64,000 bases of DNA, taken from Sulfuritalea sp. Its GTDB lineage: Bacteria; Pseudomonadota; Gammaproteobacteria; Burkholderiales; Rhodocyclaceae. The stretch covers positions 248,001 to 312,000 of the forward strand of contig JAMPYF010000001.1 of assembly GCA_023700805.1 (NCBI GenBank). Reading direction: 5' to 3'. Below, one piece after another: positions 16,969 to 42,116 of the stretch. The translations under genes were made by a program, and so were the position numbers. The notes beneath the pieces were generated by a model. That model was not told where the DNA came from and did not search any database. It was given only the letters and a program-made list of their open reading frames with translations. The stretch's first letter is position 1. Every line of letters starts with the position of its first letter.

Positions 16969-17087
16969 TTCCCCATCCCCCCCGGCCCCCCTTGGCAAGC
17001 AAGGGGGGTGACGGGTGTTCAGCCGCTTCGCGGCTTCCGGATCGTTGACTGGCCGCCTCCTTGGGGCGGCCCTGCGGAGGCGACACC
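16969..17087 (+). repeat. Structured intra-operon repeat, copy 1
   Basis: The first of three copies of a repeat of about 110 bases. Hairpin 1 is CCCCCCTTG (16986-16994) with CAAGGGGGG (17000-17008). Hairpin 2 is AGCCGC (17021-17026) with GCGGCT (17030-17035). Hairpin 3 is CGCCTCC (17054-17060) with GGAGGCG (17076-17082). GGTGACGG links hairpins 1 and 2. The GGAGG of hairpin 3 is the Shine-Dalgarno of the beta-subunit gene, six bases upstream of its ATG, so folding would hide it. Confidence 0.85.
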
Positions 17088-18104
17088 ATGAGTTTCCAAC
17101 CCGTAAAGTTCTACCAGACCGGCACCTTCACCGTCGGCAACCGCCTGCTGCCGCCCGAAGAGCGCAGCGTGCAGGCCAGCGCGAAACGCTACAACTCGAT
17201 CAACTCCGGCCACCGCGCCTGCCAGGGCTGCGGCGAGGCGCTCGGCGCGCGCTATGCGATCGACGCCGCGATGGAGGCGGCCGACGGCCAGATCATCGCT
17301 GCCAACGCGACGGGCTGCCTCGAAGTTTTTTCGACGCCCTACCCCGAGACCTCCTGGCAGATTCCCTGGATCCACTCGCTGTTCGGCAACACCGCCGCGG
17401 TGGCCACCGGCGTCGCCGCCGCGCTCAAGGTCAAGCGCCAAAAAGGCCAAGGCGGCGATGTGCGCGTCGTGGCCCAGGGCGGCGACGGCGGCACCACCGA
17501 CATCGGCTTCGGCTGCCTGTCCGGCATGTTCGAACGCAACGACGACGTGCTCTACATCTGTTACGACAACGGCGGCTACATGAACACGGGGGTGCAGCGT
17601 TCATCCGCCACGCCGCCGGCGGCGCGCACGGCCACCACCATGGCAGTCGGGCCCGAACCCGGCAACGTCTTCGGCCAGGGCAAGTTCGTCCCGGCGATCG
17701 CCATGGCCCACGACATTCCCTATGTCGCCACGGCCACCGTGGCCGACCTGCGCGACCTCGAAGCCAAAGTCCGCCGCGCCATGGAAATCCGCGGCGCGCG
17801 CTACATCCACATCCTGGTGCCCTGCCCGCTGGGCTGGGGCACGGCTTCGCACGACACCATCCGCATGGCCCGGCTGGCCAAGGAAACCGGCATCTTCCCG
17901 GTGTTCGAGGCCGAGCACGGCGAGATAAAGTCGGTGCTGACGATACGGCGGCCGCTGCCGGTCGAGGAATATCTGCGGCCGCAGAAGCGCTACGCCCACC
18001 TGTTCGGCAAGAACCCCGCGGTGGAAACCATTGCGCATATCCAGGCGCTGGCCGACAGGAACATCCGCAAGTATCGCCTCGAAGCCCGCCAGGGGAGCCA
18101 TTGA
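17088..18104 (+). CDS. 2-oxoacid:acceptor oxidoreductase, beta subunit (TPP-binding)
   Basis: A 338-residue PorB-type subunit. ACQGCGEALGARYA opens the TPP domain, GDGGTTDIGFGCLSG carries the Mg-binding region, and YMNTGVQRSSATPPAA is the typical PorB signature. Together with alpha and gamma it oxidatively decarboxylates a 2-oxoacid to acyl-CoA, passing electrons to iron-sulfur centres. No ferredoxin domain is present in this subunit; the centres are on the fourth gene product. The Shine-Dalgarno lies in the preceding repeat. Confidence 0.94.
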   Translation: MSFQPVKFYQTGTFTVGNRLLPPEERSVQASAKRYNSINSGHRACQGCGEALGARYAIDAAMEAADGQIIAANATGCLEVFSTPYPETSWQIPWIHSLFGNTAAVATGVAAALKVKRQKGQGGDVRVVAQGGDGGTTDIGFGCLSGMFERNDDVLYICYDNGGYMNTGVQRSSATPPAARTATTMAVGPEPGNVFGQGKFVPAIAMAHDIPYVATATVADLRDLEAKVRRAMEIRGARYIHILVPCPLGWGTASHDTIRMARLAKETGIFPVFEAEHGEIKSVLTIRRPLPVEEYLRPQKRYAHLFGKNPAVETIAHIQALADRNIRKYRLEARQGSH

Positions 18105-18105
18105 C

Positions 18106-19728
18106 ATGGACAAGCCCTTCGCCATAACCCTCGATCCCGGTTCCTCGCTGGCCAACCACACCGGCTCCTGGCGCACCTTCCGCCCAGAATACGTCGACCG
18201 CCTGCCGCCCTGCAATGTCGCCTGCCCCGCCGGCGAGAACATCCAGGCCTGGCTGTTCCATGCCGAAAGCGGCGATTACGAAGCCGCCTGGCGCTCGCTG
18301 GTGGAAAACAATCCGCTGCCGGCGATCATGGGCCGCGTCTGCTACCACCCCTGCGAGGGCGGCTGCAACCGCCAGCATGTCGATGCCGCGGTCGGCATCA
18401 ATTCAGTCGAGCGCTTCCTCGGCGACGAGGCCAACAAGCAGGGCTGGCAGTTTGCCCCGCCCGCCGCCGCCAGCGGCAAGCGCGTGCTGGTGGTCGGCTC
18501 GGGCCCGGCCGGACTATCCGCCGCCTACCACCTGACGCGCATGGGCCACAAGGCGGTGATCCACGAGGCGGCGCCGCTCGCGGGCGGCATGATGCGCTTC
18601 GGCATCCCGAAATACCGCCTGCCGCGCGAGGTGCTCGACGCCGAGATCAACCGCCTGGTCGAGTTCGGCGTCGAGATCCAGCTGCAAACCAAAGTCAGCG
18701 ACGTGCAGCAGGCGCTGAAGGACGGCTTCGACGCGGTTTTCCTCGGCGTCGGCGCCCACATCGCCAAGCGCGCCTACATCCCGGCCGGCGACGCCAACAA
18801 GGTGCTCGACGCGGTCGCCGTGCTGCGCGGCATGGAGGACCACGACGCGCCGATGCTGGGGCGCAAGGTGGTGGTGTATGGCGGCGGCAACACCGCGATC
18901 GACGTCGCGCGCACCGCCAAACGCCTCGGCGCGGAAGAGGCGATCATCGTCTACCGCCGCACCCGCGACAAGATGCCGGCCCACGATTTCGAGGTCGAGG
19001 AGGCGTTGCAGGAAGGCATCTCGATCAAGTGGCTGTCGACCATCAAGGAAGCCGGCGAGTCGGACATCATGGTCGAGAAAATGGCGCTCGACGACAAGGG
19101 TTTCCCGCAGCCGACCGGCGAGTTCGAGCGCATCGAGGCCGACTCGGTGGTGCTGGCGCTGGGCCAGGATGCCGACCTCGCGCTGCTCGAAAACGTGCCG
19201 GGCCTGGTGGTCGAGGGCGGCATGATCCAGGTCGATGGCGGCATGATGACCGGCCACCCCGGCGTCTTCGCCGGCGGCGACATGGCCGGCAGCGAACGCA
19301 CGGTAACCGTCGCCGTGGGTCACGGCAAGAAGGCCGCGCGCGCGATCGACGCCTGGCTGCGCCGCGCCGAATACGCGCCGGCGGAAAAGCACGAGGTCGC
19401 CACCATAGAGCGCATGAACCCGTGGTACTACTCCGACGCGCCGAAGACCATGCGCCCGGTGCTCGACATCATCCGCCGCCAGTCCACCTTCGAGGAAGTG
19501 CTGGGCGGCCTCGACGAAAACAACGCGCTGTTCGAGGCGCGCCGCTGCATGTCCTGCGGCAACTGCTTCGAGTGCGACAACTGCTACGGCGTCTGCCCCG
19601 ACAACGCCGTGATCAAGCTCGGTCCCGGCAAGCGCTTCAAGTTCAATTTCGACTACTGCAAGGGCTGCGGCATCTGCGCCACCGAGTGCCCCTGCGGCGC
19701 GATCCGCATGGTGGCCGAGGAAAACTGA
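18106..19728 (+). CDS. GltD-like FAD/NAD(P) oxidoreductase fused to a 2[4Fe-4S] ferredoxin domain
   Basis: A protein of 540 residues starting one base after the beta stop. The N-terminus has the GltD-type iron-sulfur cysteines (CNVACPAGENIQ, CYHPCEGGC), then an FAD-binding motif VLVVGSGPAGLSAAYHLTR and an NAD(P) motif VVYGGGNTAIDVART. The last 70 residues carry cysteines for two 4Fe-4S clusters (CMSCGNCFECDNC...CP and CKGCGICATECPCG). It most likely moves electrons from the decarboxylase to NAD(P)+ or back, as the epsilon subunit of phenylglyoxylate dehydrogenase does, and it replaces the usual separate delta ferredoxin subunit. Confidence 0.92.
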   Translation: MDKPFAITLDPGSSLANHTGSWRTFRPEYVDRLPPCNVACPAGENIQAWLFHAESGDYEAAWRSLVENNPLPAIMGRVCYHPCEGGCNRQHVDAAVGINSVERFLGDEANKQGWQFAPPAAASGKRVLVVGSGPAGLSAAYHLTRMGHKAVIHEAAPLAGGMMRFGIPKYRLPREVLDAEINRLVEFGVEIQLQTKVSDVQQALKDGFDAVFLGVGAHIAKRAYIPAGDANKVLDAVAVLRGMEDHDAPMLGRKVVVYGGGNTAIDVARTAKRLGAEEAIIVYRRTRDKMPAHDFEVEEALQEGISIKWLSTIKEAGESDIMVEKMALDDKGFPQPTGEFERIEADSVVLALGQDADLALLENVPGLVVEGGMIQVDGGMMTGHPGVFAGGDMAGSERTVTVAVGHGKKAARAIDAWLRRAEYAPAEKHEVATIERMNPWYYSDAPKTMRPVLDIIRRQSTFEEVLGGLDENNALFEARRCMSCGNCFECDNCYGVCPDNAVIKLGPGKRFKFNFDYCKGCGICATECPCGAIRMVAEEN

Positions 19729-19802
19729 GAGCGGAGCCGGCCGGACCGCCGCCGCGGCTGGGCTACAATCCGTGCGGTACCCTGCCATGGAGGCGAAGCG
19801 CG

Positions 19803-20198
19803 ATGAGCGGACAAACTGGAGAACTGGAGCGGCTGCGCGCCTTCCTGGCTGGGCAGCCCGCGCTGGAATTGGCAATTCTCGTCGGCAGCCGCGCCGATGG
19901 CCGCGCCTGCGAAGGCAGCGACTGGGATATCGCGATTCAATGGCCGAACGAGCTGAGCCTGTTCGATACCCTCGCCCGTAGCGAAACCCTGCGCCGTGAT
20001 CTGGCGGCTTTGTTGGGCGTGACCGAAGATTTCATCGACCTGATCGATCTGCCGACCGCGCGCCTCGCCATGCGGGCGGCGGTGGCCGAAGATGGCGTAC
20101 CGCTTCATGGCGAAGACAGCCTAGCCTGGAACCGCTTCCTGGCTCGCACCTGGCGCGAGATCGAGGACTACGAATGGGAGCGCACGCGTGCGGCTTGA
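19803..20198 (+). CDS. mntA: MntA-type nucleotidyltransferase antitoxin
   Basis: A 131-residue minimal nucleotidyltransferase with the exact family motif GS-x(10)-DxD (GSRADGRACEGSDWD, residues about 28-42). MntA antitoxins neutralise HepT by adding AMP to a tyrosine of the toxin. The start was placed at the ATG after GGAGGCGAAGCG. A TACAAT at 19764-19769 could be the -10 box. The toxin gene starts inside its last codons, the usual arrangement for this system. Confidence 0.88.
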   Translation: MSGQTGELERLRAFLAGQPALELAILVGSRADGRACEGSDWDIAIQWPNELSLFDTLARSETLRRDLAALLGVTEDFIDLIDLPTARLAMRAAVAEDGVPLHGEDSLAWNRFLARTWREIEDYEWERTRAA

Positions 20199-20604
20199 CC
20201 TCTATCAGGCGGAAACCGCCTTTATCGCCCGCGAGCAGGGCGCGCTGCTCGACGAGGCGCGCCGCAAGCTGCTGGCCGGGGAAATCCTGTCGGGGCTGGA
20301 GCAGAACGGCGTGCTCCACGCCTTGCAGGTACTGATCGAAAATTCCATCGGCAAGACAAAGCAAATGCTCAAGGCCGCCGGGGAGCCCGTTCCCGTATCC
20401 GCCTACGATGCCTTTGCCACGCTGGCCCGCCATGGTGGGATTCGCGCGGATGAATTGCCGGCATGGAATGCCGTGATCGGCCTGCGCAACCGTATCGTGC
20501 ATGACTACATGAACATCGACATGGCGCGCGTGCTGGAGCTCGTGCAGCTCGGCCGCCACGAGTTCGTCATCGCGTTCCTGCTGGCCGATCCGCAGGCGGG
20601 TTGA
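20188..20604 (+). CDS. hepT: HepT-type HEPN RNase toxin
   Basis: A 138-residue HEPN-domain protein carrying the RX4HXY motif RNRIVHDY near residue 110, where Arg and His form the RNase site and Tyr is the residue AMPylated by MntA. Translation begins at GTG and overlaps mntA by 11 bases. The active-site residues are intact, so the toxin may be functional. The pair lies at the edge of a degraded stretch with an integrase fragment, consistent with acquisition by transfer. Confidence 0.88.
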   Translation: MRLDLYQAETAFIAREQGALLDEARRKLLAGEILSGLEQNGVLHALQVLIENSIGKTKQMLKAAGEPVPVSAYDAFATLARHGGIRADELPAWNAVIGLRNRIVHDYMNIDMARVLELVQLGRHEFVIAFLLADPQAG

Positions 20605-20817
20605 AGCAACCGGGCATGCCCTGTCGCCCGGCTGCCGATTCAAGCCGATCTTCTGAGTTGACAGCGAAGGCCGTGAGCGAGTGACGCAGAACGGCCATAG
20701 GATTAAACCGCTCGCGCGGTAATGGGAGCTCCGCTGTCGCATTGGAGGTAGGATGAAGCATAGTTCTGTCTATGTTGGGAACTGAGGCAATCCGCCTCGT
20801 TACCCAAGGAGCAGAAC

Positions 20818-20925
20818 ATGAAGACGTTCACGCAAGCCCCCAGTGAGTTGCGGTTACGGATGATCGAGGACATGCGGATGCGCAAGCTCGAACTCCGGAC
20901 ACCCTCCCGCTTAGGACACTTCTGA
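20818..20925 (+). pseudogene. Truncated tyrosine recombinase (integrase) N-terminus
   Basis: A 35-codon reading frame with a good GGAG Shine-Dalgarno encodes SELRLRMIEDMRMRKLEL, which resembles the first residues of XerC-like integrases of the type accompanying IS91-like elements. The reading frame then runs into unrelated sequence and stops, so both the core-binding and catalytic domains are missing. It is a deletion remnant of a mobile element. Confidence 0.6.
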
Positions 20926-21076
20926 GACAAACAACCCCGGCAATTCTTCCTTGAGCTCCTCCCCACGCCCAACAACCTGAGCGGCGCGCCTTGCACGCTG
21001 TGCAATCGGCGATCCACCGCGTGGAGCGATGAACGACGCGTGATGTGCGCAGCAACGGGGCGATAGCCGCCGTACT

Positions 21077-21157
21077 GCCAGCGCCAACTCTTGCCGCCGC
21101 CTTCCCTCCGCCTGCCAACGCGGCTATATTGGTCTCAAACGAAGAGCGGGGGGGCAT
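21077..21157 (+). repeat. Short motif copy B with leader resembling the acyl-CoA synthetase leader
   Basis: GCCAGCGCCAACTCTTGCCG is followed by a pyrimidine-rich stretch, then GGCTATATT (21122-21130) and a run of G before ATA. The same order (motif, CGCC-rich tract, GGCTATATT, G-run, ATG) occurs at 36845-36960 before the acyl-CoA synthetase gene. Here the ATG position reads ATA and no gene follows, so it looks like a decayed copy of that leader. Confidence 0.45.
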
Positions 21158-21222
21158 AAACCTTGGTCAATCATCTGCATGACCGCCGACGGCGCGCGAC
21201 TGGCGGCCGTGCCGGCCGGCCC

Positions 21223-21251
21223 TTGACGGAAGCAGCCTCTCATCCGACAAT
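21223..21251 (+). promoter_or_regulatory. Sigma-70-type promoter of the phosphoesterase/kinase operon
   Basis: TTGACG (21223-21228) and GACAAT (21246-21251) are separated by exactly 17 bases. Transcription would start near 21258, giving a leader of about 12 bases before the ATG at 21270. Confidence 0.65.
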
Positions 21252-21269
21252 CCGGTCGGCTGATCGCCC

Positions 21270-22010
21270 ATGAGAATTGCGGTCCTGGCGGACATCCACG
21301 CCAACCTGGAGGCCTTGCGCGCCTGCCTGGCGCACGCGGCGCGCGAGGGCGCCACCCAGTATGTCTTTCTCGGCGACCTGGTCGGCTACGGCGCCGATCC
21401 GGTCGCCTGCCTCGGCCTGCTGGCCGACCATGCGGCCAGGGGTGCGCTGCTGGTCAGGGGCAATCACGACGACGCGGCGCTGGGCGGCCTGTGCGAGACC
21501 ATGAACTTCGTCGCGCGCGAAGCGACCTACTGGACACGCGCCCAACTGGGCAGCGGCGAGCGCGATTTCCTGGCGGCTCTGCCCTACTCCGCACGGCGCG
21601 ACGATCTGCTGTTCGTGCATGCCGGCGTCAATGCGCCGGGGACGTGGGAATACATCACCAGCAACCTGCAGGCGGGACGCTGCATGGATGCCGCACAGGC
21701 GACGCTGACGTTTGCCGGGCACGTGCACCACCCGTCGCTGTATTTCGCGGCCGGCAGCGGCGTGCATCACTTCCTGCCCGTGGCAGGTGCGCCCATCCCC
21801 CTGAGCGGCCGCCGGCGCTGGCTGGCGATCGGCGGTTCGGTCGGCCAGCCGCGCGACGGCAACAACGCGGCGGCGTATGCGCTTTACGATGAAGAGCAGC
21901 GCATGCTGAAGTACTTTCGCGTGCCCTACGACCACCTGAGCGCGGCGCGCAAGATTCTCGCGGCCGGACTGCCGGAACGTCTGGCGCTGCGACTGCACAG
22001 AGGCGAGTGA
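21270..22010 (+). CDS. Metallophosphoesterase, YfcE/ApaH-like superfamily
   Basis: A 246-residue protein with the full set of dinuclear-metal motifs: LADIHAN (residues 6-12), FLGDLVGYG, VRGNHDDA, FVHAG and FAGHVHHP. This calcineurin-like fold covers phosphodiesterases, diadenosine polyphosphatases and Ser/Thr protein phosphatases. Its stop codon is immediately followed by the ATG of a Ser/Thr kinase gene with no gap, so an opposing phosphatase for that kinase or its targets is an attractive but unproven role. Confidence 0.88.
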   Translation: MRIAVLADIHANLEALRACLAHAAREGATQYVFLGDLVGYGADPVACLGLLADHAARGALLVRGNHDDAALGGLCETMNFVAREATYWTRAQLGSGERDFLAALPYSARRDDLLFVHAGVNAPGTWEYITSNLQAGRCMDAAQATLTFAGHVHHPSLYFAAGSGVHHFLPVAGAPIPLSGRRRWLAIGGSVGQPRDGNNAAAYALYDEEQRMLKYFRVPYDHLSAARKILAAGLPERLALRLHRGE

Positions 22011-23435
22011 ATGGAAAGCGCCGCTCACCTCAGGCCGGGAACGCAGATCGCCGCCTACCGCGTGCAGGAAAAACTGCGCGAAGGCGGCATGGCGTTGCTT
22101 TACCGGGTCGCCGCCGGCGACGGCGGCGAGGCCGGCCTGCTGAAAGTGCCGAAGCTGGAATTCGGCAGCCATCCGGCCTGCTATGCCGGCTTCGAGGTCG
22201 AGCAGATGATCCTCGCGCGCGTGGCCGGACCGCATGTGCCGCGCCTGCTGGCCAGCGGCGAAAGCGATTGCGGCCCCTACCTGGTGATGGAAGAGATCGC
22301 CGGCAAGTCGCTCGCCGAATTCGCGGCCGCTGCGCCGCTGCCGGCCGCCGAAGTCGCCCGGCTCGGCGCCGCGCTGGCCTCGGCGCTGCACGATCTGCAT
22401 CGGCAGGAAGTGGTGCACCACGACCTCAAGCCCTCGCATGTGATCCTGCGCGCGGATGGCCGGGCGGCGCTGATCGATTTCGGCCTGGCATTCCACGGCC
22501 ACCTGCCCGATCTGGCCGCGGCGGAATCCGAGAAGCCGCTGGGCACGCCGGCCTATATCTCGCCGGAGCAGATTGCCGGCGTGCGCGGCGATCCGCGCAG
22601 CGACGTGTTCTCGCTCGGGGTGGTGCTGTATCTGCTGGCCACCGGCCGGCTGCCCTTCGGCGAACCGGCCGGCATGGGCGGTCTGCGCCGGCGCCTTTAC
22701 TTCGATCCGCCGCCGCCGCGGCGCATCGTCGCCGACCTGCCCGAATGGCTGCAGGAAATCATCCTGCATTGCCTCGAAGTGCGCGCGGACGACCGCTACG
22801 CCACCGCGGCGCAGGTTGCGCACGACCTGCAGCATCCCGAGCAGGTGACGCTGACGCAACGCGGCCGCCGCCGCAAACGCGCCGGCCCGCTGGTCGCGGC
22901 CCGGCGCTGGCTGGCGGCGCTGTCCGCCGCGCCGCCGCCGCGCCGGGCGCCCACGGCCCACCTGGCGCTGGCGCCGCAGGTCATGGTCGCCATCGATACC
23001 GGCAGCGAAGCCCTGTTCCAGGCCCTGCGCGATGCGACGCGGCGCATCGTCGGCGGCGAGCAGCACTGGCGCGTGAGCTGCGTCAGCGTGCTGGAGCCTT
23101 CGCTGCTGACCGAGCAGGAAGACGGCGCCGAGATCATGCGCGGGCTGCACATGCAGCGCTTGGTGGAACTACACCACTGGGCGCAGCCCCTCGGCCTGCC
23201 GCAGGAGCGGCTGCGCTTCCACGTGCTCGAAGGCCGCGACGTGCCGGCGCGGCTGATCGAATACGCGCGCGCCAGCCATGCCGACCACATCATCATCGGC
23301 GCCCGCGGCAGTTCCGGCCGGCGCCGCCTGCTCGGCAGCGTGTCCTCGCGCGTGGCGAGCGAGGCGCCGTGCACGGTGACCGTGGTACGTGTTTCGCATG
23401 GCACCGGCATGAGCACAGAATGCGCTGATCCATAA
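22011..23435 (+). CDS. Ser/Thr protein kinase with C-terminal UspA domain
   Basis: A 474-residue protein. The kinase domain spans about residues 12-275: glycine loop REGGMALLYRV, Lys 45 in LLKVPK, catalytic loop HHDLKPSHVIL (Asp near 137; HHD instead of HRD) and DFGLAF (about 159), then GTPAYISPEQ. A basic Pro/Arg-rich linker leads to a UspA-like domain from about residue 325, ending with the nucleotide-loop-like GARGSSGRRRLLGS, one residue shorter between the glycines than the usual consensus. No membrane segment is seen, so it is probably cytosolic. It may be gated by ATP or AMP bound to the UspA part. Confidence 0.9.
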   Translation: MESAAHLRPGTQIAAYRVQEKLREGGMALLYRVAAGDGGEAGLLKVPKLEFGSHPACYAGFEVEQMILARVAGPHVPRLLASGESDCGPYLVMEEIAGKSLAEFAAAAPLPAAEVARLGAALASALHDLHRQEVVHHDLKPSHVILRADGRAALIDFGLAFHGHLPDLAAAESEKPLGTPAYISPEQIAGVRGDPRSDVFSLGVVLYLLATGRLPFGEPAGMGGLRRRLYFDPPPPRRIVADLPEWLQEIILHCLEVRADDRYATAAQVAHDLQHPEQVTLTQRGRRRKRAGPLVAARRWLAALSAAPPPRRAPTAHLALAPQVMVAIDTGSEALFQALRDATRRIVGGEQHWRVSCVSVLEPSLLTEQEDGAEIMRGLHMQRLVELHHWAQPLGLPQERLRFHVLEGRDVPARLIEYARASHADHIIIGARGSSGRRRLLGSVSSRVASEAPCTVTVVRVSHGTGMSTECADP

Positions 23436-23451
23436 ATCAAAACATTTGATT
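23435..23451. promoter_or_regulatory. 17-base perfect palindrome upstream of the rhodanese gene
   Basis: AATCAAA-ACA-TTTGATT begins in the kinase stop codon and lies 124 bases before the rhodanese ATG. It contains FNR-like half sites, but in the inverted order (ATCAA before TTGAT), so it is not a standard FNR box. It could be an operator for another dimeric regulator or a small hairpin. Confidence 0.4.
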
Positions 23452-23574
23452 GCCGACCGATTGTTCCGTAGTTTGATAGCGCGGGAGCGCAAACCGACAA
23501 TCAATAGTCAGGTACGCTTGCAGATGTTTTCACACTTTGCGCGGCGCCCGCCGCATACACGGAGGAGGATAAAG

Positions 23575-24030
23575 ATGCACACCATCAAGCAGGCATTCGT
23601 CACGTTCGTCAGTTGCGGTTTTCTGGTTGCCGGCGGCAGTGCGCTGGCCCAGGAAACACCCACCGCGGCTCCCGCCGGCGTCAAGCTGGTCGAAGCCAAG
23701 GCGGTGCAGGATCTGCAGGCCAAGGGCGCGGTGCTGGTCGACACGCGCAAGGCCAGCGAGTATTCCGACGCCACCATCAAGGGCGCCATCTCGGTGCCCT
23801 ACGATCCGGAGAAGAGCGCGAAGGACGTGAAGTTCGATGCGGCCCAGGACAAGTTCGACATGAGCAAGATCGCCGACAAGAACAAGGACTACGTCGTGTT
23901 CTGCAATTCCGGCACCTGCTGGAAATCCTACAAGGCTGCCGTCGTCATGGCCAAGGCCGGCTACAAGAACGTGCATTGGTACCGCAACGGCATGCCTGAC
24001 TGGAAGGCCCGCAAGCTGCCAATGGAATAA
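23575..24030 (+). CDS. Periplasmic rhodanese-domain protein
   Basis: A 152... 151-residue-range protein beginning after GGAGGAGGAT. A Sec signal peptide (residues 1-23, ending GGSALA before QETP) precedes one rhodanese domain with VLVDTRKASEYSDATIKGA and the active-site loop CNSGTCWKS. The Cys loop fits sulfur transfer or binding of thiosulfate, persulfide or similar species in the periplasm. It lies upstream of a putative sulfate exporter, which suggests handling of sulfur anions at the envelope. The start was chosen for the signal peptide and ribosome-binding site; a longer in-frame start upstream lacks both. Confidence 0.92.
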   Translation: MHTIKQAFVTFVSCGFLVAGGSALAQETPTAAPAGVKLVEAKAVQDLQAKGAVLVDTRKASEYSDATIKGAISVPYDPEKSAKDVKFDAAQDKFDMSKIADKNKDYVVFCNSGTCWKSYKAAVVMAKAGYKNVHWYRNGMPDWKARKLPME

Positions 24031-24051
24031 ATTCCATCCTGTTCCGTCCAT

Positions 24052-24086
24052 AGACACCGGGGGCGTTCCGCGCGTCCCGGGTGTCT
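24052..24086 (+). terminator. Hairpin between rhodanese and exporter genes
   Basis: AGACACC-GGG and CCC-GGTGTCT form a long GC stem with a small loop; TATAGATTTCC follows, which is a poor U-tract. It could be a weak terminator or attenuator that lowers transcription into the exporter gene, whose Shine-Dalgarno lies about 25 bases further on. Confidence 0.5.
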
Positions 24087-24122
24087 TATAGATTTCCCAC
24101 GAGCGACCGAGGAGGAACAAGA

Positions 24123-25877: not shown

Positions 25878-25887
25878 GGAGAACACC

Positions 25888-26016: not shown

Positions 26017-26039
26017 GCGACTTGCTGCCGCCATAAACC

Positions 26040-26083: not shown

Positions 26084-26128
26084 GTCGCCGCCCCATGCGG
26101 CGGCAACGGTAGTCACGGAAAATCAGAC

Positions 26129-27201: not shown

Positions 27202-27213
27202 GTTTCACCGTCC

Positions 27214-27234
27214 CGCCAGCGCCAACTCCTGCGG
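27214..27234 (+). repeat. Short dispersed motif, copy C
   Basis: CGCCAGCGCCAACTCCTGCGG lies about 80-100 bases upstream of the AIM24-family gene; GGTATTCTG at about 27274 might contain its -10 box. It shares its first 15 bases with the copies at 6358, 21077 and 36845. Confidence 0.45.
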
Positions 27235-27312
27235 CACCCGCGCCGGCCTCCGCAAAGTCCGGCGGGCAAATCCGGTATTCTGTGCGCCCCAATTCAAGCC
27301 GGAGACCGCAGC

Positions 27313-28107: not shown

Positions 28108-28108
28108 G

Positions 28109-32670: not shown

Positions 32671-33267
32671 ATGCTCACTGACAAGCAGCTCAACGATGCG
32701 AATGCCTACGGTGAATGGCTGCGTCTTGCTGTACACGAAAAGAGCTTGCCTGCGAACAACCGAGTACGGGCGGCGGGTTCATGTCTTGGCATTGCACAAG
32801 ATCATCATCACGCGATCATCGTGCTCCTTGACGCAAGACTTTATGCGTCTTGTTTTGCGCTTCTGCGAGTTGCTTTTGAGGCATACGTTCGCGGTGAGTG
32901 GCTTGCCTTGTGCGCGACAGATACTCAAGTTCAAAAATTCTGGAAAGGTTGGGAGCCACCGAAGATCGACAAACTGCTGGACGCGCTAGCGCAAAAGGAC
33001 GCGTTCCAAGTGGGACGACTTTCTCTAATCAAGAAGCGCAACTGGAAGGCGCTTTGTGGATATACCCATACCGGCGGCATCCATGTCCAGCGTTGGAACA
33101 CTTCTGACGGAATCCAAGCAAATTACTCTGTAGCAGAGCTCCTGGAGGTACTTCGGTTTGCCGACGTCATTGCCACACTCGCTGTGCTCGGCGTTCTATC
33201 CTTGGCGGATGACGCCGCAACCTCGGAGAAACTGTTGGAGCGGTTCAAGGCAAGGATGGAGGCATGA
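32671..33267 (+). CDS. DUF6988-like protein (possibly HEPN-like), horizontally acquired
   Basis: A 198-residue, mostly helical protein. The pattern HHHAIIVLLDARLYASCFALL-R-VAFEAYVRGEWL and LCGYTHTGGIHVQRWN resembles DUF6988 proteins, as recalled from that family. The gene is visibly lower in GC than its surroundings and uses AT-ending codons, indicating recent transfer. It has no partner gene. ATG 32671 was chosen over a TTG four codons upstream. A defence or stress role would be a guess. Confidence 0.7.
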   Translation: MLTDKQLNDANAYGEWLRLAVHEKSLPANNRVRAAGSCLGIAQDHHHAIIVLLDARLYASCFALLRVAFEAYVRGEWLALCATDTQVQKFWKGWEPPKIDKLLDALAQKDAFQVGRLSLIKKRNWKALCGYTHTGGIHVQRWNTSDGIQANYSVAELLEVLRFADVIATLAVLGVLSLADDAATSEKLLERFKARMEA

Positions 33268-33483
33268 GTTCTGGCCCCACATTTCTGAGCGACTGCTTTG
33301 CTGGACTGGCTAAGTCCGTTAAGGGCACGGAGAGTGAATAGCACTTTTCGATAAGCTGCCGCCCGGATTTGCCACCCCTGCATTTATTGCTGGTGAATTG
33401 TTGAACGACAGCAACAATGCGTATTGCCGCCGTACATCAATTCGTAAGTAAGAACTTCGGGATGCCGAAACAGACTGTCCCCG

Positions 33484-35766
33484 TCAACCGCCCAGAATGG
33501 GCAAGCCGGCCTTCTCGCTGAACGCGGGTGTCCGGCGCAGCAATCCCAGCACCACCTGCAAGGCCACGGATACGGCGCCGACGATGAACACCACATCGCC
33601 GAAAGTTCGCGCCCAGCGCAGTGTTTGCAGCAAGGGCTGCTGCATGAACTCTTCGCTGCGCGCGTACCAGAGGCCCTGGCTTACGCTGGCGTGAAACTGG
33701 ATGAAGCCGATCGGCAGCAGGCTGCTGAAGATCATCAGTGCCAGGCCGGCATTGAGCCCCCAGAACGCGGTTTTCATCAACCCCTGGTGCAAGCGGTATT
33801 GCGGCCGGATATAGCGCAGCACCAGCAGCGTGAAGCCCAGCGCAAGGAAACCATAGACCCCGAACAGCGCGGCGTGGGCGTGCACCGGCGTGGTATTCAG
33901 ACCCTGCAGGTAGAACAGCGCCAGCGGCGGGTTGATCATGAAGCCGAAGACGCCGGCACCCAGCATGTTCCAGAAGGATACGGCGACAAAGAACAGCAGC
34001 GGCCATTTGAGTTCCTCCATCCAGGCTGCCCGCGCCTTGAGCCGCCAGTTTTCCCAGGCATCGTGGCCCAAGACGATCAGCGGCACCACTTCCAGGGCGC
34101 TGAAGCTCGCCCCGACGGCCATCACCGCGGTCGTGGTGCCGGAAAAGTACAGGTGATGGAAGGTGCCGGGGATGCCGCCGAGCAGGTACAGCGAGGCTGA
34201 AGCCAGGCTGGCGGTCGTCGCCATGCGCCGCGATACCAGTCCCAGCGTGGCAAAGACGAAGGCCAGGGCGGTCGTCGCAAACACTTCGAAGAAGCCTTCG
34301 ACCCACAAATGCACCACCCACCAGCGCCAGTATTCCATCACCGTCAGGTGGGTGCGCTCGCCATAGAACAGGCCGGCGCCATAGAACAGACCGATCGCCA
34401 CCACGGACGAGGTGAGCAGCGCCAGCAGGTTCTTGTCGCCGCCCGGGCGCTTCAGGGTCGGCGCGATGCCGCGCAGCATCAGCACCAGCCAGAAGGCGAT
34501 GCCGGCGAATTTGCCGATCTGCCAGAGGCGGCCGAGATCGAGATATTCGTAACCCTGATGGCCGAGCCAGAAATTGAGGTGGGGCGGCATGATCTGCGCT
34601 ATGGCAAAGTAGTTGCCGATGAAGGAACCGGCCACCACCACGATCAGGGCCCAGAACAGGATGTCCACGCCAAGCTTCTGGTAGCGCGGGTCCTTGCCGC
34701 CATTGATCAGCGGCGCGAGGAACAGACCCGCGGCGAGGAATCCCGTGGCAATCCAGAACAATGCCGCCTGGATGTGCCAGGTGCGCACCAGCGCATAGGG
34801 AAACCACTGCGAGAGATCCACGCCGTAGAACTTCTGGCCTTCAACCGTGTAGTGCGCGGCGAAGCCGCCGATCATGACCTGGAACACGAACAGCGCCACG
34901 ATCAGGAATAGGTACTTGCCCAGCGAGCGCTGCGACGGCGTCAGCGCGAAGCTGCGCAGCGGATCCTGCGCAGCCGCGGCCGGCAGCGGCTCGTCGTGGC
35001 GGCGCAGGAAGGCCCAGGCCCACACCAGCAGGCCGACACCGGCCAGCAGCACCACGATGCTGGCGATCGACCAGACGATGTTTTCGGTACTCGGCTGGTT
35101 GCCGATCAGCGGTTCATGCGGCCAGTTGTTGGTGTAGGTGACCTGCTGGCCCGGACGCTCGGTGGCGGCCGCCCAGGCGGTCCAGAAGAAGAAGTGGGTC
35201 AGCTTCACCCGGCGCTCCGCGCTGGGCAGGGTGTTCTCCTTCATCGCATAGTGCTCGCGGCTCTTCTGCAGTTCGGGCGCGTCGGAGAACAGGCGCTGGT
35301 AGTAGTCGGCGGTTTGCGTCATGGCTTGCGCGCGTCGCGCAGAGACCCTCAGCACGTCGCTGGCCGGGTGCACCCGGTTGCCCCGGTATTCGAGTTTCAG
35401 TTCTTCCCGCAGTTCGGCCTGCGCTGAGGCGCCCAGCGCCGCATACGGCTTGCCGTAGCCAAGTTGTGCCGCGAGGTCGAGCCAGGCGCTCAGTTCCCGG
35501 TGCAGCCAGTCGGCGGTCCAGTCCGGGGCCTGGTAGGCGCCGTGGCCCCAGATCGAGCCCAGTTGCATGCCGCCGACCGATTGCCACGCCGTCTGACCGT
35601 CGAGGATATCGTCACGGGTGAACATCACCGCGCCGTCGCCAGCGACCACCTGCCCCGGTATGGGCGGCGCCTGCCGATAGACCTCGGTGCCGTAGTAGCC
35701 GAGCAGCGAGAAGGTGAGCGCCAGAACGGCGATCAGGATGAACCAGAGTTTGCGGTAGGAGCCCAT
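33484..35766 (-). CDS. norZ: Quinol-dependent nitric oxide reductase (qNor)
   Basis: A 760-residue single-subunit qNor that reduces 2 NO to N2O with electrons from quinol. An N-terminal NorC-like extracytoplasmic segment without a haem c motif (residues about 30-220) is followed by a 12-helix NorB domain. Metal ligands are intact: His in RTWHIQAALF for haem b, HLWVEGFFEVF (His and Glu for FeB), and the His pair in FHHLYFSG. The intact FeB ligands argue against nitric oxide dismutase. It stands alone with no regulator beside it, so NO detoxification or the last part of a split denitrification pathway is likely. Confidence 0.96.
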   Translation of the reverse strand: MGSYRKLWFILIAVLALTFSLLGYYGTEVYRQAPPIPGQVVAGDGAVMFTRDDILDGQTAWQSVGGMQLGSIWGHGAYQAPDWTADWLHRELSAWLDLAAQLGYGKPYAALGASAQAELREELKLEYRGNRVHPASDVLRVSARRAQAMTQTADYYQRLFSDAPELQKSREHYAMKENTLPSAERRVKLTHFFFWTAWAAATERPGQQVTYTNNWPHEPLIGNQPSTENIVWSIASIVVLLAGVGLLVWAWAFLRRHDEPLPAAAAQDPLRSFALTPSQRSLGKYLFLIVALFVFQVMIGGFAAHYTVEGQKFYGVDLSQWFPYALVRTWHIQAALFWIATGFLAAGLFLAPLINGGKDPRYQKLGVDILFWALIVVVAGSFIGNYFAIAQIMPPHLNFWLGHQGYEYLDLGRLWQIGKFAGIAFWLVLMLRGIAPTLKRPGGDKNLLALLTSSVVAIGLFYGAGLFYGERTHLTVMEYWRWWVVHLWVEGFFEVFATTALAFVFATLGLVSRRMATTASLASASLYLLGGIPGTFHHLYFSGTTTAVMAVGASFSALEVVPLIVLGHDAWENWRLKARAAWMEELKWPLLFFVAVSFWNMLGAGVFGFMINPPLALFYLQGLNTTPVHAHAALFGVYGFLALGFTLLVLRYIRPQYRLHQGLMKTAFWGLNAGLALMIFSSLLPIGFIQFHASVSQGLWYARSEEFMQQPLLQTLRWARTFGDVVFIVGAVSVALQVVLGLLRRTPAFSEKAGLPILGG

Positions 35767-36092
35767 GGTGCAGCACTCTCATTGGGTTGCGTTCAAGCGA
35801 CCCATCGGGGTCTGACGGCTCGGCGCATCACCGTTGGCGACGAGCCTATTCGCGCGCTGCGACCAATTCCGTGCGCTGGCACGCATTGCCCGGGTAGCCG
35901 ACAGGAAAGCCATCGCTGCGCGTCATCGCTTAACCCTCAAATGCGCGTCAGCGCACAGAGATCGGCAATACGTTCGCGTAGCTTGGCCGCGACTCTACGG
36001 ATTCTGCTGCGTTGCAGTCCTGCGCTGCGGTCAGTTGCGCGATTGCGCTATACGCAATCATTGATTCATTGAACCCCACAGGGAAGACCACT
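35767..36092. other. Divergent intergenic region between qNor and DUF305 genes
   Basis: This 326-base region holds the promoters of both divergent genes. No strong FNR-type box was found; TTGATTCATTGAA near 36060 matches only one half site. Nothing else is recognised. Confidence 0.5.
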
Positions 36093-36662
36093 ATGAACAC
36101 CTCACTACTCGTTGCCGCGATGATCGGCTGCACATTGTCAGTACCCGTTGTCTCTGCCCAGGAAACAAACCTGTCCGCCAGACCGGCGATGAGCATGGAC
36201 ATGGACAAGAAAATGCCCCGGATGCAGGAGAACATGAAAACGATGCAGCAGCAGATGGATCAGCTCCAGGCTACAAGCGACCCGACGCGACGCGAGAATC
36301 TGATGCAGCAGCACATGCAGACCATGCAGGAAAACATGATGACCATGCGCGGCATGGGCGGCATGATGATGCAGGGCTCGACCGGGCACGGCGCGATGCA
36401 GCACGGCGCAGCCGGGTCGGATGCAATGAAGCATTCGATGATGGCCGGAATCGACAGCATGCAAACCATGCCCATGTCCGGTGAAACCGACAAGGACTTC
36501 GCGATGATGATGAAGGCGCATCATCAGCAAGCCCTGGACATGGCGCAGGTGGAACTCGAGCACGGCAAGTCGCCGGCGATGAAGTCGATGGCACGCAAGA
36601 TCATTTCCGCGCAGAAGAAAGAGATTGCCCAGCTCGATCAGTGGCTCGGCAAACAGAAGTGA
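36093..36662 (+). CDS. Secreted Met-rich DUF305 protein
   Basis: A 189-residue periplasmic protein. The signal peptide ends VPVVSA before QET. The middle is packed with Met and His (MSMDMDKKMPRMQENMKTMQ, GMGGMMMQGSTGHGAMQHG), typical of copper or silver binding. The last 60 residues match DUF305 (DFAMMMKAHHQQALDMAQ, GKSPAMKSMARKIISAQKKE). Such proteins accompany copper homeostasis; no copper pump or sensor is adjacent here. The divergent qNor is not obviously related. Confidence 0.88.
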   Translation: MNTSLLVAAMIGCTLSVPVVSAQETNLSARPAMSMDMDKKMPRMQENMKTMQQQMDQLQATSDPTRRENLMQQHMQTMQENMMTMRGMGGMMMQGSTGHGAMQHGAAGSDAMKHSMMAGIDSMQTMPMSGETDKDFAMMMKAHHQQALDMAQVELEHGKSPAMKSMARKIISAQKKEIAQLDQWLGKQK

Positions 36663-36957
36663 TTTATCGAGCGGTGTGGCACGGCGATGCACCTCTGATG
36701 CCAAGGCCAACAACCGCAAAGGTCGACAAGCGCCCCTCCCTCACTCCTTCACGCGGCCCCTGACCGCAGCCCTCGGTGGGCCCCGCATGGCCCCCCGGCC
36801 GCCGTGGGCGCGAAGCCGTGCTTCGCGACGGCCCCACGCCGTGTCGCCAGCGCCAACTCTTGCCGCTCCTGTCCGGCAAGCAAACGTCTAACCGAAACGC
36901 CGCCTTTCCCCCGCCCCCAGAAGGGGCTATATTTCCTGCATAAGCAGTGGGGGAGGC
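36663..36957 (+). promoter_or_regulatory. Leader of the acyl-CoA synthetase cluster
   Basis: A 295-base gene-free leader. It contains the short motif copy D (36845-36866), a CCCCCGCCCCC/GGGG stretch and GGCTATATT (36925-36933), whose TATATT is the likely -10 box; the -35 is not clear. A G-rich ribosome-binding site (GGGGGAGG) precedes the ATG. The same layout recurs in degenerate form at 21077-21157. Confidence 0.5.
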
Positions 36958-38728
<1,771 letters not shown>

Positions 38729-38733
<5 letters not shown>

Positions 38734-38840
38734 GCGCCGCCCGCCGGGCCGTCCCGAGGGCGGCGCAGTCAATATCCCGGAGCCGCGCAGCGGCGAACGA
38801 CCGTCACCCCCGTCTGCCGGGCGGGGGCTGGGAGGTGGGC
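38729..38840 (-). repeat. Structured intra-operon repeat, copy 2 (inverted)
   Basis: The same element as copy 1 in opposite orientation. Hairpin 3 arms are GCGCCGCCC (38734-38742) and GGGCGGCGC (38758-38766), hairpin 2 GCCGC (38782-38786) and GCGGC (38790-38794), hairpin 1 CCCCCG (38807-38812) and CGGGGG (38822-38827). Every stem keeps pairing although the bases differ from copies 1 and 3. The stop codon of the synthetase lies in its edge, and the GGGAGG after hairpin 1 is the Shine-Dalgarno of the E1 alpha gene. Confidence 0.8.
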
Positions 38841-38844
38841 AGCC

Positions 38845-39861
38845 ATGACTGATCATCGCGCCCCACCGCCGCCCTCCGGCCCCGTGCCCTGGGACAAGGA
38901 TTTCGCGCTGCGCCTGCTGACCGACATGCTGCGCATCCGCCGCATGGAGGAAAAGTCGGCCGAGATGTACGGCGCGGGCAAGATCCGCGGCTTCCTCCAT
39001 CTCTACATCGGCGAGGAGGCGACGGGCGTCGGCGCGCTGCACGCCCTGTCGCCGGACGACAACATCGTCGCCACCTACCGCGAGCACGGCCACGCGCTGG
39101 TGCGCGGCATGGACATGGGCGCGATCATGGCCGAGATGTACGGCAAACGCGAAGGCTGCGCGCACGGCCGCGGCGGCTCGATGCACCTGTTCGACGCAGC
39201 AACGCGATTCTATGGCGGCAATGCCATCGTCGGCGGCGGCCTGCCGCTGGCGGTCGGCCTGGCGCTGGCGGCGAAGATGCGGCAGGAGCAGCGCGTCACC
39301 GCCTGTTTTTTCGGCGACGGCGCGGTGGCCGAAGGCGCCTTCCACGAATCGCTGAACCTTGCCGCGCTGTGGCGTCTGCCGGTGCTGTTCTGCTGCGAGA
39401 ACAATCTCTATGGCATGGGCACGGCGATCGAGCGCAGCGAATCGCAGACCGACCTCTGCCTCAAGGCGGCCTCCTACGGCATGCCGGCGCTGCGTGCCGA
39501 CGGCATGGACATCGTCGCGGTGCACGAGACGACGCGGCAGGCGGTGCGCACGCTGCGCGAAAGCGCGGGGCCGGTGTTCGTCGAATACCAGACCTATCGC
39601 TTCCGCGCCCATTCGATGTTCGACGCCGAGCTCTACCGGCAGAAGGCCGAGATCGAGGAATGGAAAACCCGCGGCCCGATCCACACCTTCAGCGCGCGAC
39701 TCAAGGCCGAGGGCAAGCTGACGGAAGAAGAATTCCTCGCGCTCGATGCCGCGGCCGATGCCGAGGTCGCCGCCGCGGTGGCCTTCGCCGAAGCGGGCAG
39801 CTGGGAGCCTGTGGCTGACTTGCTGAAGGATGTCCTTACTCCTGCGGAAGGCAAGCCATGA
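38845..39861 (+). CDS. 2-oxoacid dehydrogenase E1 component, alpha subunit
   Basis: A 338-residue TPP-dependent E1 alpha of the pyruvate/acetoin dehydrogenase type. The TPP/Mg motif is [20 protein letters not shown]-x(8)-[16 protein letters not shown] and [10 protein letters not shown] are the usual flanking signatures. It decarboxylates a 2-oxoacid and, with E1 beta, loads the acyl group on lipoyl-E2. It is coupled to the beta gene by an ATGA overlap. Pyruvate and acetoin cannot be separated by sequence alone. Confidence 0.93.
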
Positions 39862-40832
39862 CGCGCACACTGAGCTACCGCGAAGCCATGCGCGAGGCCA
39901 TGCACGAAGCGCTGGCCAATGACCCGCGCGTGTTCCTGATGGGCGAGGACGTCGGCCGCTACGGCGGCACCTATGCGTTTTCCAAGGGCTTCCTCGACGA
40001 GTTCGGGCCCGAGCGCATCCGCGACACGCCGCTATCGGAACTCGGCTTCGTCGGCGCCGGCATCGGCGCGGCGCTGGGCGGCATGCGGCCGATCGTCGAG
40101 GTGATGACGGTGAATTTCAGCCTGCTGGCGCTGGACCAGATCGTGAATACGGCGGCCGCCCTGCGCCACATGTCGGGCGGCCAGTTCTCGGTTCCGCTGG
40201 TGATCCGCATGACCACCGGCGCCGGGCGCCAGCTGGCGGCCCAGCACTCGCACAGCCTGGAAGGCTGGTACGCCCACATTCCCGGCATCAAGGTGCTGGC
40301 GCCGGCCACCATCGAGGATGCGCGCGGCATGCTGGCGCCGGCGCTGGCCGACCCCGATCCGGTGGTGATCTTCGAGCATGCCGGGCTGTTCAACCTGGAA
40401 GGCGAACTGCCCGACGACTGGAGCGCCGACATCAGCTCGGCCAGGGTGCGGCGCGCGGGCAAGGACGTCGTCATCATCACCCACGGCGGCTCGCTGCCCA
40501 AGGCGCTGGCGGCGGCCGAAACGCTGGCCGGCGAAGGCATTGCCGCGGAAGTGCTGGACCTGCGCGTGCTGCGCCCGCTCGATGGCGCGGGCATCATGGC
40601 CGCGGTCGCCAAGTGCCGCCGCGCGGTAGTCGTCGACGAAGGCTGGAAGAGCGGCAGCCTCGCCGCCGAGGTCGTCGCGCGCATCATGGAAAACGCCTTC
40701 TACGAACTCGACGCGCCGGTGGTGCGGGTCTGTTCCGAGGAAGTGCCGATTCCCTATGCGAAACACCTCGAAGAAGCCGCGCTGCCGCAAGCGGAAAAGA
40801 TAGTCGCCGCCGTGAAAGGACTTTTCGCATGA
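39858..40832 (+). CDS. 2-oxoacid dehydrogenase E1 component, beta subunit
   Basis: A 324-residue E1 beta with [38 protein letters not shown] and VTVN... region conserved as [16 protein letters not shown], ending with the transketolase C-terminal domain ([12 protein letters not shown]). It forms the alpha2-beta2 E1 with the preceding gene product and shares ATGA overlaps with both neighbours, giving tight translational coupling through E2. Confidence 0.93.
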
Positions 40833-42004
40833 TCCAATTCAAGCTCCCCGCGCTGGGTTCCGACATGGACGAGGGCACCCTGCTGGAATGGAAAGTTGGC
40901 GTTGGCGACACGGTGAAGAAGGGCCAGGTGGTGGCGATCGTCGACACCTCGAAGGCGGCCGTGGATATCGAAAGCTGGCAGGAAGGCACGGTGCACCAGT
41001 TGATCGCCGAGCCGGGACAGAAGATGCCGGTCGGCACCGTGATGGCGACCCTGCTCGAAGCCGGCGAGGCGGCTCCGGCAGGAGTTGGCGCTGGCGCTGC
41101 GGCGCCCGCCCCGGCGCCCCCAGCCACCCCCGCTGCGGCCCCCGCGCCGCGCCGCATGATCTCGCCGGCGGCACGCAAGCATGCGGCGGAAAAGGGCATA
41201 GACCTCGACCGCGTCACCGGCAGCGGACCGCATGGCGCGGTGACGCTCGACGATGTCGAACGCGCCGCGGCAGCCGCCGCGGTCACCGCGGAACCTCCGG
41301 CCGCGGCGCCCGGGCCGGGCAAACCGGTCGACCGCACGGCAGACATGCGCAGGACCATCGCCGCCGCCATGAGCCGCTCCAAGCGCGAGATTCCGCACTA
41401 CTACGTCGCCGAGGACATCCCGCTGGCGAAGGCGCTGGCCTGGCTGCAGGCGGCCAACGCCGCGCGGCCCATGGCTGAACGCCTGCTGCCGGCCGCGCTG
41501 CTGCTGAAGGCCGTGGCCCTGGGCTTGCAGCGCTATCCCGAGCTCAACGGCTACTGGCGCGATGGCGAGTTCCAGGCCGAGCAAGCCATCCATCTCGGCG
41601 TGGCGATTTCGCTGCGCCAGGGCGGGCTGATCGCGCCGGCGCTGCTCGATGCCGGGAGCAAGACGCTGACGCAGCTGATGCAGGAACTGACGGACCTGGT
41701 GAAGCGCACCCGCGCCGCGTCGCTGCGCAGTTCGGAAATGAGCCGGGCCACCGTCACCGTGACCAATCTCGGCGACCAGGGCTCGCAGGCCGTGTTCGGC
41801 GTGATCACGCCGCCGCAGGTGGCGCTGGTGGGATTCGGCCGCGTCGCCGAACGGCCGTGGGCCGAGGACGGCGGGCTCAAGGTGCTGCCGGTGGTGACGG
41901 CCAGCCTCGCCGCCGACCATCGCGTCTCCGACGGCCATCGCGGCGCGCTGTTCCTGCGCGAACTCAACGACCTGCTGCAAAGACCCGAGGAACTGGAGAA
42001 ATGA
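40829..42004 (+). CDS. Dihydrolipoamide acyltransferase (E2)
   Basis: A 391-residue E2 with one lipoyl domain (lipoyl Lys near residue 43 in [12 protein letters not shown]), an Ala/Pro linker, a peripheral-subunit-binding domain (about 103-140: [19 protein letters not shown]) and a catalytic domain ending in [14 protein letters not shown], where His is catalytic and the usual HRVxDG is kept. It passes the acyl group to CoA. No E3 gene is present, so a distant lipoamide dehydrogenase must serve the complex. Confidence 0.93.
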
Positions 42005-42009
42005 CGACC

Positions 42010-42116
42010 TACCCCCCATCCCCCTTCCCCAGAAAGGGGGTGACAGCGGTTCGCGGCCTGATCGGCCGCTCCATCTTAATGACGGCGCCTCCTTGGGGCG
42101 GCCCGGCGGAGGCGCT
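42010..42116 (+). repeat. Structured intra-operon repeat, copy 3
   Basis: Same orientation as copy 1. Hairpin 1 is CCCCCTT (42020-42026) with AAGGGGG (42034-42040), hairpin 2 GCGGCC (42053-42058) with GGCCGC (42064-42069), hairpin 3 GCGCCTCC (42085-42092) with GGAGGCGC (42108-42115). The GGAGG of hairpin 3 is the Shine-Dalgarno of the acyl carrier protein gene, whose ATG follows four bases later, so pairing would occlude initiation. Confidence 0.85.

What the first reader, a model, noticed from the sequence alone, without database searches (positions are those of the whole stretch)
16969..42116. Three-copy intra-operon repeat with three co-varying hairpins that carries Shine-Dalgarno sequences
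Seen directly: copies at 16969-17087, 38729-38840 (inverted) and 42010-42116 share a C-rich arm, GGGGGTGAC, a GCCGC hairpin and a GGCGCCTCC...GGCGGAGGCG hairpin. In all three stems the bases differ between copies yet still pair (for example CGCCTCC/GGAGGCG, GCGCCTCC/GGAGGCGC and GCGCCGCCC/GGGCGGCGC). Each copy lies between two co-directional genes of an oxidoreductase operon. In copies 1 and 3 the 3' arm of the last hairpin is the Shine-Dalgarno of the next gene, so folding would shut its translation; in copy 2 the other edge supplies GGGAGG. This looks like a dispersed element used as a translational valve or transcript-processing site.
Basis: partly seen in the sequence, partly recalled or inferred. 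Interest (0 to 1): 0.75.

Follow-up and report, generated by a model that had tools for sequence, protein, structure and literature searches.

The report
Mobile repeat targeting start codons
The three repeats are copies of a short, probably mobile DNA element that sits precisely at the start codons of genes inside operons and often carries a ribosome-binding sequence at the end next to the gene, so it can spread without breaking the genes it lands between.

Summary
In detail: three related copies with three compensating hairpins sit between co-directional genes. But it is not a three-copy operon element. A covariance model gives 102 matches (E<=0.1) in this 4.16-Mb genome and matches in all 31 genomes of its genus that were searched, own included; the genus is Sulfuritalea-like by inference. 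Orthologous sites in sister species are occupied, empty, or occupied in the opposite orientation. Empty sites suggest insertion at the downstream gene's start codon, often an ATGA stop/start overlap, leaving RTGA on both sides; an exact 4-nt duplication is seen for forward copies only. Of 66 copies with both sides assigned, 60 separate co-directional genes. Two subfamilies use opposite orientations, and a Shine-Dalgarno core is enriched at the end facing the start codon. The last hairpin is equally stable in both orientations, so the 'translational valve' reading is not supported. Best explanation: a non-autonomous palindromic mobile element at start codons of operon-internal genes that supplies a replacement ribosome-binding site. 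The mobilising enzyme was not found. Nearest kinds: MITEs, REP, Rickettsia palindromic elements. The papers searched gave no description of start-codon targeting with Shine-Dalgarno donation.

The parts
16960..16963 (+). ATGA, left copy of the putative 4-nt duplication flanking copy 1
   Evidence: sequence; sister G028 (L100) has a single ATGA at the junction
16964..17087 (+). copy 1 of the element, forward subfamily
   Evidence: model match G000:C37:264975-265088, 93.9 bits
17076..17082 (+). 3' arm of last hairpin, GGAGGCG, holds the SD core for the next gene
   Evidence: sequence, consensus fold
17088..17091 (+). ATGA, right copy; its ATG starts the next gene
17088..18104 (+). gene after copy 1: TPP-enzyme C-terminal domain (2-oxoacid:ferredoxin oxidoreductase beta-like)
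   Evidence: PF02775
15656..16948 (+). gene before copy 1: pyruvate/ferredoxin oxidoreductase alpha-like (start not settled)
   Evidence: PF01855, PF17147 in 15746-16945
38730..38733 (+). ATGA at stop-side edge of copy 2; TGA is the stop of the upstream gene
38734..38844 (-). copy 2 of the element, reverse relative to the genes
   Evidence: model match G000:C37:286728-286838, 87.3 bits
38830..38835 (+). GGGAGG, SD-like sequence supplied by the C-rich end of copy 2 read in reverse
   Evidence: start-facing duplex energy -14.7 kcal/mol
38845..38848 (+). ATGA at start-side edge of copy 2; ATG starts the next gene
36958..38733 (+). gene before copy 2: AMP-binding enzyme
   Evidence: PF00501
38845..39861 (+). 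gene after copy 2: dehydrogenase E1 component
   Evidence: PF00676
42001..42004 (+). ATGA at left edge of copy 3; TGA is the stop of the upstream gene
42005..42116 (+). copy 3 of the element, forward subfamily
   Evidence: model match G000:C37:290009-290120, 104.3 bits
42108..42112 (+). GGAGG, SD core in the 3' arm of the last hairpin of copy 3
   Evidence: sequence
42117..42120 (+). ATGA at right edge of copy 3; ATG starts the next gene
   Evidence: G002 has one ATGA there
40613..42004 (+). gene before copy 3: 2-oxoacid dehydrogenase acyltransferase (E2); start not settled
   Evidence: PF00198
42117..42368 (+). gene after copy 3: small carrier protein with phosphopantetheine site
   Evidence: PF00550

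Best explanation
A family of about 105-120-bp, non-autonomous, hairpin-rich mobile elements. It inserts at the start codon (RTGA) of operon-internal genes, often where that codon overlaps the previous stop (ATGA), and leaves RTGA on both sides, so the upstream gene keeps its stop and the downstream gene keeps its start. The insertion pushes the native SD about 110 bp away; the element end that faces the start codon tends to carry a replacement SD. Shown: copy number, site polymorphism, both orientations at one site, 4-nt duplication for forward copies, start codon at the edge, SD core enriched at the start-facing end. Inferred: that reverse copies also duplicate RTGA, that ribosomes use the SD, that a transposase acts in trans, and that the hairpins serve transposition or are its by-product rather than translation control.
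For: 102 matches in the own genome; all 31 genus genomes searched. c1 site, 24 sister loci read: forward in 4, reverse in 3, another insertion in 1, no insert in 16. G002 over 1.6 Mb: 37 orthologous junctions, 26 classed empty, 24 resolved; 10 of 24 overlap by 4 nt (184 of 1269 neighbouring pairs, P 0.0011) and 21 of 24 lie between an 8-nt overlap and a 10-nt gap (443 of 1269 overlap at all or are 0-10 nt apart, P 1.5e-7). At eight sites against up to seven sisters, 11 of 31 insert-free junctions differ from the occupied site by the element plus exactly 4 nt, at four sites, e.g. own GGAACT-ATGA-[element]-ATGA-TTGAAC, sister GGAACT-ATGA-TCGAAC. Start codon at the edge in 27 of 27 forward and 29 of 33 reverse copies. 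SD core: right end 15/22 forward vs 5/28 reverse, P 4.6e-4; left end read backwards 20/28 reverse vs 3/22 forward, P 5.4e-5.
Against: No transposase or longer autonomous copy found. The exact 4-nt duplication was seen only for forward copies; no insert-free sister junction of a reverse copy gave it. Edge tetramers are identical in only 13 of 23 forward and 14 of 26 reverse copies read. The start codon was chosen nearest the edge within the best-scoring frame, so its edge position is partly by construction. Some copies lie elsewhere: one in frame inside a helicase-like gene, one apparently convergent (C59:67985). Duplex energy with a recalled anti-SD was stronger at the start-facing end in 27 of 28 reverse but only 5 of 27 forward copies. 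Copies share ancestry, so the Fisher tests do not rest on independent events.
Confidence: 0.76

Rival explanations
1. The element is a cis-acting RNA valve or processing site: folding hides the SD and tunes expression of the next gene.
For: Stems covary; in forward copies the SD core lies in the 3' arm of the last hairpin.
Against: Reverse copies keep the same hairpin away from the start codon; the genes flanking the three window copies are of different kinds; sister species keep the same gene pairs without the element.
Confidence: 0.12
2. No real start-codon targeting: the element inserts widely and purifying selection leaves only copies at stop/start junctions that spare both genes.
For: Such positions spare both genes; other, unrelated repeats occur at some of the same junctions in sisters.
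Against: Longer intergenic, convergent and divergent regions should also tolerate copies (inference), yet 21 of 24 resolved empty junctions are between an 8-nt overlap and a 10-nt gap, and in 9 of 27 forward copies the start codon is at the edge although the upstream stop is more than 8 nt away.
Confidence: 0.3
3. IS200/IS605-like single-strand (Y1 HUH) mobilisation: RTGA is the cleavage tetranucleotide, not a true duplication.
For: No terminal inverted repeats, hairpins near both ends, tetranucleotide at the edges, orientation linked to subfamily (nearest-neighbour concordance 0.91 vs 0.50 permuted, 0 of 2000, 54 of 60 copies). Family traits are recalled.
Against: Of 30 Y1 loci examined (of 45 matches in the genus) none has a convincing copy nearby (best 11.8 bits, E 0.43); G017 and G019 (99% complete) show no Y1 gene but 43 and 23 matches to the element.
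Confidence: 0.3
4. Guide model: the variable arms of the last hairpin match the target gene's own SD, so the element chooses targets by pairing.
For: Single cases, e.g. C7:80885 left AGGAACTATGA, right AGGAACCATGA.
Against: Permutation reached the observed value in 244 of 5000 (with shifts) and 435 of 5000 (without) for 23 forward copies.
Confidence: 0.07

Closest known systems
Bacterial MITEs (review PMC10969869: start of abstract and passages seen)
   [quoted passage not shown] title only seen)
   Different: No terminal inverted repeats here; the words 'start codon', 'stop codon' and 'ribosome' do not occur in the main text of that review
Rickettsia palindromic elements (same review, passage seen)
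   Same: Palindromic elements of about 150 bp that can lie in frame inside genes; one copy here does so
   Different: There nearly half of 44 first-reported copies lie in coding genes; here one clear in-frame case, and 60 of 66 fully assigned copies lie between co-directional genes
REP elements with RAYT transposases (recalled)
   Same: Dispersed hairpin repeats without terminal inverted repeats
   Different: No Y1-linked copy found in the 30 loci examined; about 110 bp, three hairpins, RTGA at both edges
ERIC/IRU and Correia elements (recalled)
   Same: Short intergenic repeats that can lie within transcripts
   Different: Recalled to insert at TA; here RTGA at a start codon

Membership tests
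MITE | short, no coding capacity of its own, many copies | tested here: met
   model of 111 positions, 102 matches at E<=0.1
MITE | target-site duplication | tested here: met
   exactly 4 nt at 11 of 31 insert-free sister junctions, at four forward sites; not shown for reverse copies
MITE | terminal inverted repeats | tested here: not met
   24-nt ends match no better than shuffles: 10.2 vs 10.0 (27 forward), 11.2 vs 11.0 (32 of 33 reverse)
MITE | parent IS with matching ends | tested here: inconclusive
   none in the held sequence, a small part of the genus
REP/RAYT | linked Y1 REP-associated transposase | tested here: not met
   none of 30 Y1 loci examined, of 45 matches
IS200/IS605-derived element | tetranucleotide target, hairpins near the ends (recalled) | tested here: met
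IS200/IS605-derived element | no target duplication; guide bases matching the cleavage sites (recalled) | tested here: inconclusive
   RTGA on both sides fits either reading; guides not identified
cis-regulatory RNA valve | hairpin placed over the regulated start codon | tested here: not met
   hairpin equally stable in reverse copies, where it abuts the stop
known Rfam family | match at gathering score | tested here: not met
   0 matches in the window
Rickettsia palindromic element | frequent in-frame insertion in coding genes | tested here: not met
   one clear in-frame case; 60 of 66 fully assigned copies between co-directional genes

The most novel reading that the evidence does not exclude
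A mobile element whose machinery recognises translation start sites of operon-internal genes (RTGA in its SD context) and that has evolved two subfamilies of opposite orientation, each with a ribosome-binding site at the end facing the start: a transposon that pays its way by rebuilding the RBS it displaces, and that uncouples translationally coupled gene pairs across a genus.
Probability: 0.4. Interest if true: 0.82.

Novelty: new variant of a known kind. Interest (0 to 1): 0.6.

Why it matters
Overlapping ATGA gene pairs are reported to be widespread and translationally coupled (PMC6728339, abstract seen). An element that splits such pairs at the shared codons, with a built-in SD, is a repeated natural experiment on coupling: the same gene pair exists with and without it in sister species. 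It is also a clear case of a repeat whose covarying stems mimic a regulatory RNA while orientation, empty sites and duplications point to a mobile origin, and it raises the question of what enzyme could target start codons.

Tried and rejected
Rfam: no match at gathering score in the window. Y1 transposase as mobiliser: the own genome has one Y1 gene, lying among a different repeat; 26 of 31 genus genomes have Y1 matches, 45 in all, of which 30 loci were examined and none has a convincing copy nearby. Autonomous partner: half-element profiles over part of the held sequence gave 24 left and 11 right unpaired halves but no left-right pair 60-5000 nt apart; an earlier regex attempt was too strict. 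Guide model: weak. Phage and plasmid collections: no match for copy 3. A permutation script returned empty counts because of a data-type slip and was repeated. Duplex energy was set aside as an SD measure because G-runs dominate it; its result goes against my reading for forward copies. Literature: ten searches; eight looked for such an element or its kind, two for precedents; no account of it was seen in the listings, and most subscription papers are not held. Rows dropped: of 102 matches the 91 best were analysed, and the search itself scored 150 of 4805 first-look candidates; 25 of 91 lacked a gene call on at least one side; of 27 forward copies 2 were dropped beforehand and 2 had no readable edge, of 33 reverse 7 were unreadable; SD counts use 22 of 27 and 28 of 33; orientation test 54 of 60; of 37 G002 junctions 10 held an insert and 1 was out of range, leaving 26.

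Full report
What is there. The three copies are as described, and each is flanked by ATGA on both sides: 16960-16963/17088-17091, 38730-38733/38845-38848, 42001-42004/42117-42120. In copies 2 and 3 one ATGA holds the stop TGA of the upstream gene, and in all three the other ATGA holds the start ATG of the next gene. The flanking genes are of different kinds: ferredoxin oxidoreductase-like subunits, AMP-binding enzyme/E1, E2/carrier protein.

A genome-wide family. BLAST with copy 3 gave 43 matches at E<=10 in the own genome. A covariance model (R1) from 31 copies gave 102 matches at E<=0.1, 86 of them at 54 bits or more; 150 of 4805 first-look candidates were scored. Among 61 genomes including the own, all 31 of the genus match (12 to 62 matches; at most 62 candidates were scored per genome). 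Outside the genus 4 of 6 genomes of the family match (60, 11, 10 and one weak), and 1 of 24 genomes of other families has one match at E 0.0075. Named relatives with matches include Sulfuritalea MAGs, a Sulfurisoma MAG and Candidatus Nitricoxidireducens bremensis (23 matches at E<=0.01 in 80 loci). The window is Sulfuritalea-like (Sterolibacteriaceae) by inference from these relatives. Copy 3 has no match in the phage and plasmid collections.

Structure. On 31 copies 16 of 22 predicted pairs have compensatory changes, up to 17 sequences at one pair. Covariation shows that a hairpin is kept in the nucleic acid, not whether it works as RNA or as single-stranded DNA. Single copies fold only modestly better than shuffles. 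The two ends are not inverted repeats of each other.

Sites are polymorphic. At the c1 junction, of 24 sister loci that could be read, 4 carry the element forward, 3 in reverse, 1 another insertion and 16 none. At c2, 1 of 9 is occupied and 8 have no insert. At c3, of 11, 1 is occupied, 1 has a shorter related insert, 1 has a different palindromic repeat flanked by ATGAACA on both sides, and 8 have none. Against 1.6 Mb of G002, 37 own sites had an orthologous junction: 10 held an insert there (6 of this family, 4 of other DNA, by inspection), 1 was out of range, 26 were classed empty. Of these 24 had both genes resolved: 10 overlap by 4 nt, 2 by 1 nt, 1 by 8 nt, 8 are 0-10 nt apart, 3 are farther. 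In a rough gene map of the same 1.6 Mb, 184 of 1269 neighbouring pairs overlap by 4 nt and 443 overlap at all or lie 0-10 nt apart (P). G002 is a sister, not the ancestor, and starts were chosen near the stop in both sets.

Target duplication. Eight own sites were compared with up to seven sisters. Of 31 junctions without an insert, 11 differ from the occupied site by the element plus exactly 4 nt: three at C7:80885 (G011, G005, G023), two at C7:81744, two at C55:40068, four at C55:44421. All are forward copies. The other 20, including all at the three reverse sites C41:40035, C41:40816 and C41:43816, differ by other amounts. At C7:81744 G001 and G016 carry another insertion. In G002 the forward sites C37:290009, C4:202076 and C37:185853 also give exactly 4 nt, though the last is not an overlap.

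Gene context. Of the 91 best copies 66 had a coding call on both sides: 27 forward (stop, then start), 33 reverse, 3 stop/stop, 3 start/start. Some of the last six look misassigned on inspection; C59:67985 looks truly convergent. Co-directional 60 of 66 compares with 897 of 1269 (P 6.8e-5). The start codon lies at the edge in 27 of 27 forward and 29 of 33 reverse copies; the stop lies within 8 nt in 18 of 27 forward and at the edge in 29 of 33 reverse. The start was taken nearest the edge in the best-scoring frame, so this is partly by construction; a first pass that ranked starts by coding score often chose one further inside. I read the start codon as the constant target, with the stop at the edge where genes overlap. 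Edge tetramers: 13 of 23 identical forward; in reverse 24 of 26 TCAY at both ends and 14 of 26 identical.

Orientation and Shine-Dalgarno. The core sequence predicts orientation (concordance 0.91, permuted 0.50, 54 of 60 copies). In 13 aligned forward copies GGAG in the right arm is invariant; in 15 reverse copies it is not conserved. Counting GGAG, GAGG or AGGA: right end 15 of 22 forward and 5 of 28 reverse; left end read backwards 3 of 22 forward and 20 of 28 reverse. Anti-SD duplex energy agrees for reverse copies (27 of 28) but not for forward ones (5 of 27), where the other end's G-run pairs more strongly. The last hairpin is equally stable in both groups. This supports a ribosome-binding role of the start-facing end and argues against a hairpin that exists to mask it. 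Copies are related, so P values overstate independence.

Mechanism. Shown: presence/absence at orthologous junctions, both orientations at one site, RTGA at the edges, exact 4-nt duplication for forward copies. Inferred: mobilisation in trans by an enzyme not found, duplication for reverse copies, and use of the supplied SD. Whether start-codon targeting belongs to the enzyme or to selection is open. Other repeats at some of the same junctions show that the site type tolerates several families.

Comparison. The nearest described kind is the bacterial MITE (PMC10969869, passages seen), but terminal inverted repeats were tested and not met, so I do not file it as a typical MITE. One copy lies in frame in a helicase-like gene (HrpA-like by recall) in the own genome and in G018, as Rickettsia palindromic elements do. 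The literature searches (listed under Tried and rejected) showed no description of start-codon targeting with SD donation; they cover open-licence papers only.

Noticed in passing
L154 (C55:47340-47443) and L365 (G018): A copy of the element lies in frame inside a helicase-like gene and adds a net 33 residues, rich in proline and glycine; present in two species.
   Followed up: partly
L072; G002 stretches read: Other palindromic repeats (CCGCAGATGACGCAGAT and ACCGCAGAGACGCAGAGG types) occupy the same junctions in sister genomes, with TCAT/ATGA on both sides there.
   Followed up: partly
window 13771-13872: Inverted repeat TTCACCACCAAGACACCAAG... (arms 42 nt, 83% complementary, 18 nt apart), apparently between two minus-strand genes and not exactly at a start codon.
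   Followed up: no
L031: The only Y1 transposase match of the own genome lies among GTGAGCCTGGCCCC-type repeats; several Y1 loci of sister genomes have similar repeats.
   Followed up: partly
L154 about 3968-4138 (query 2969-3139): Another dispersed repeat of about 170 bp with many matches at about 75-85% identity in sister genomes.
   Followed up: no
L173 (C50:1705-1811 and 1818-1924); L142 and L123 at their first bases: Tandem copies of the element, as expected if a copy's edge can itself be a target.
   Followed up: no
window 21068-21097, 27206-27235, 36837-36866, 53493-53522: Short dispersed repeat of the GCCAGCGCCAACTCTTGC type, four copies in the window.
   Followed up: no
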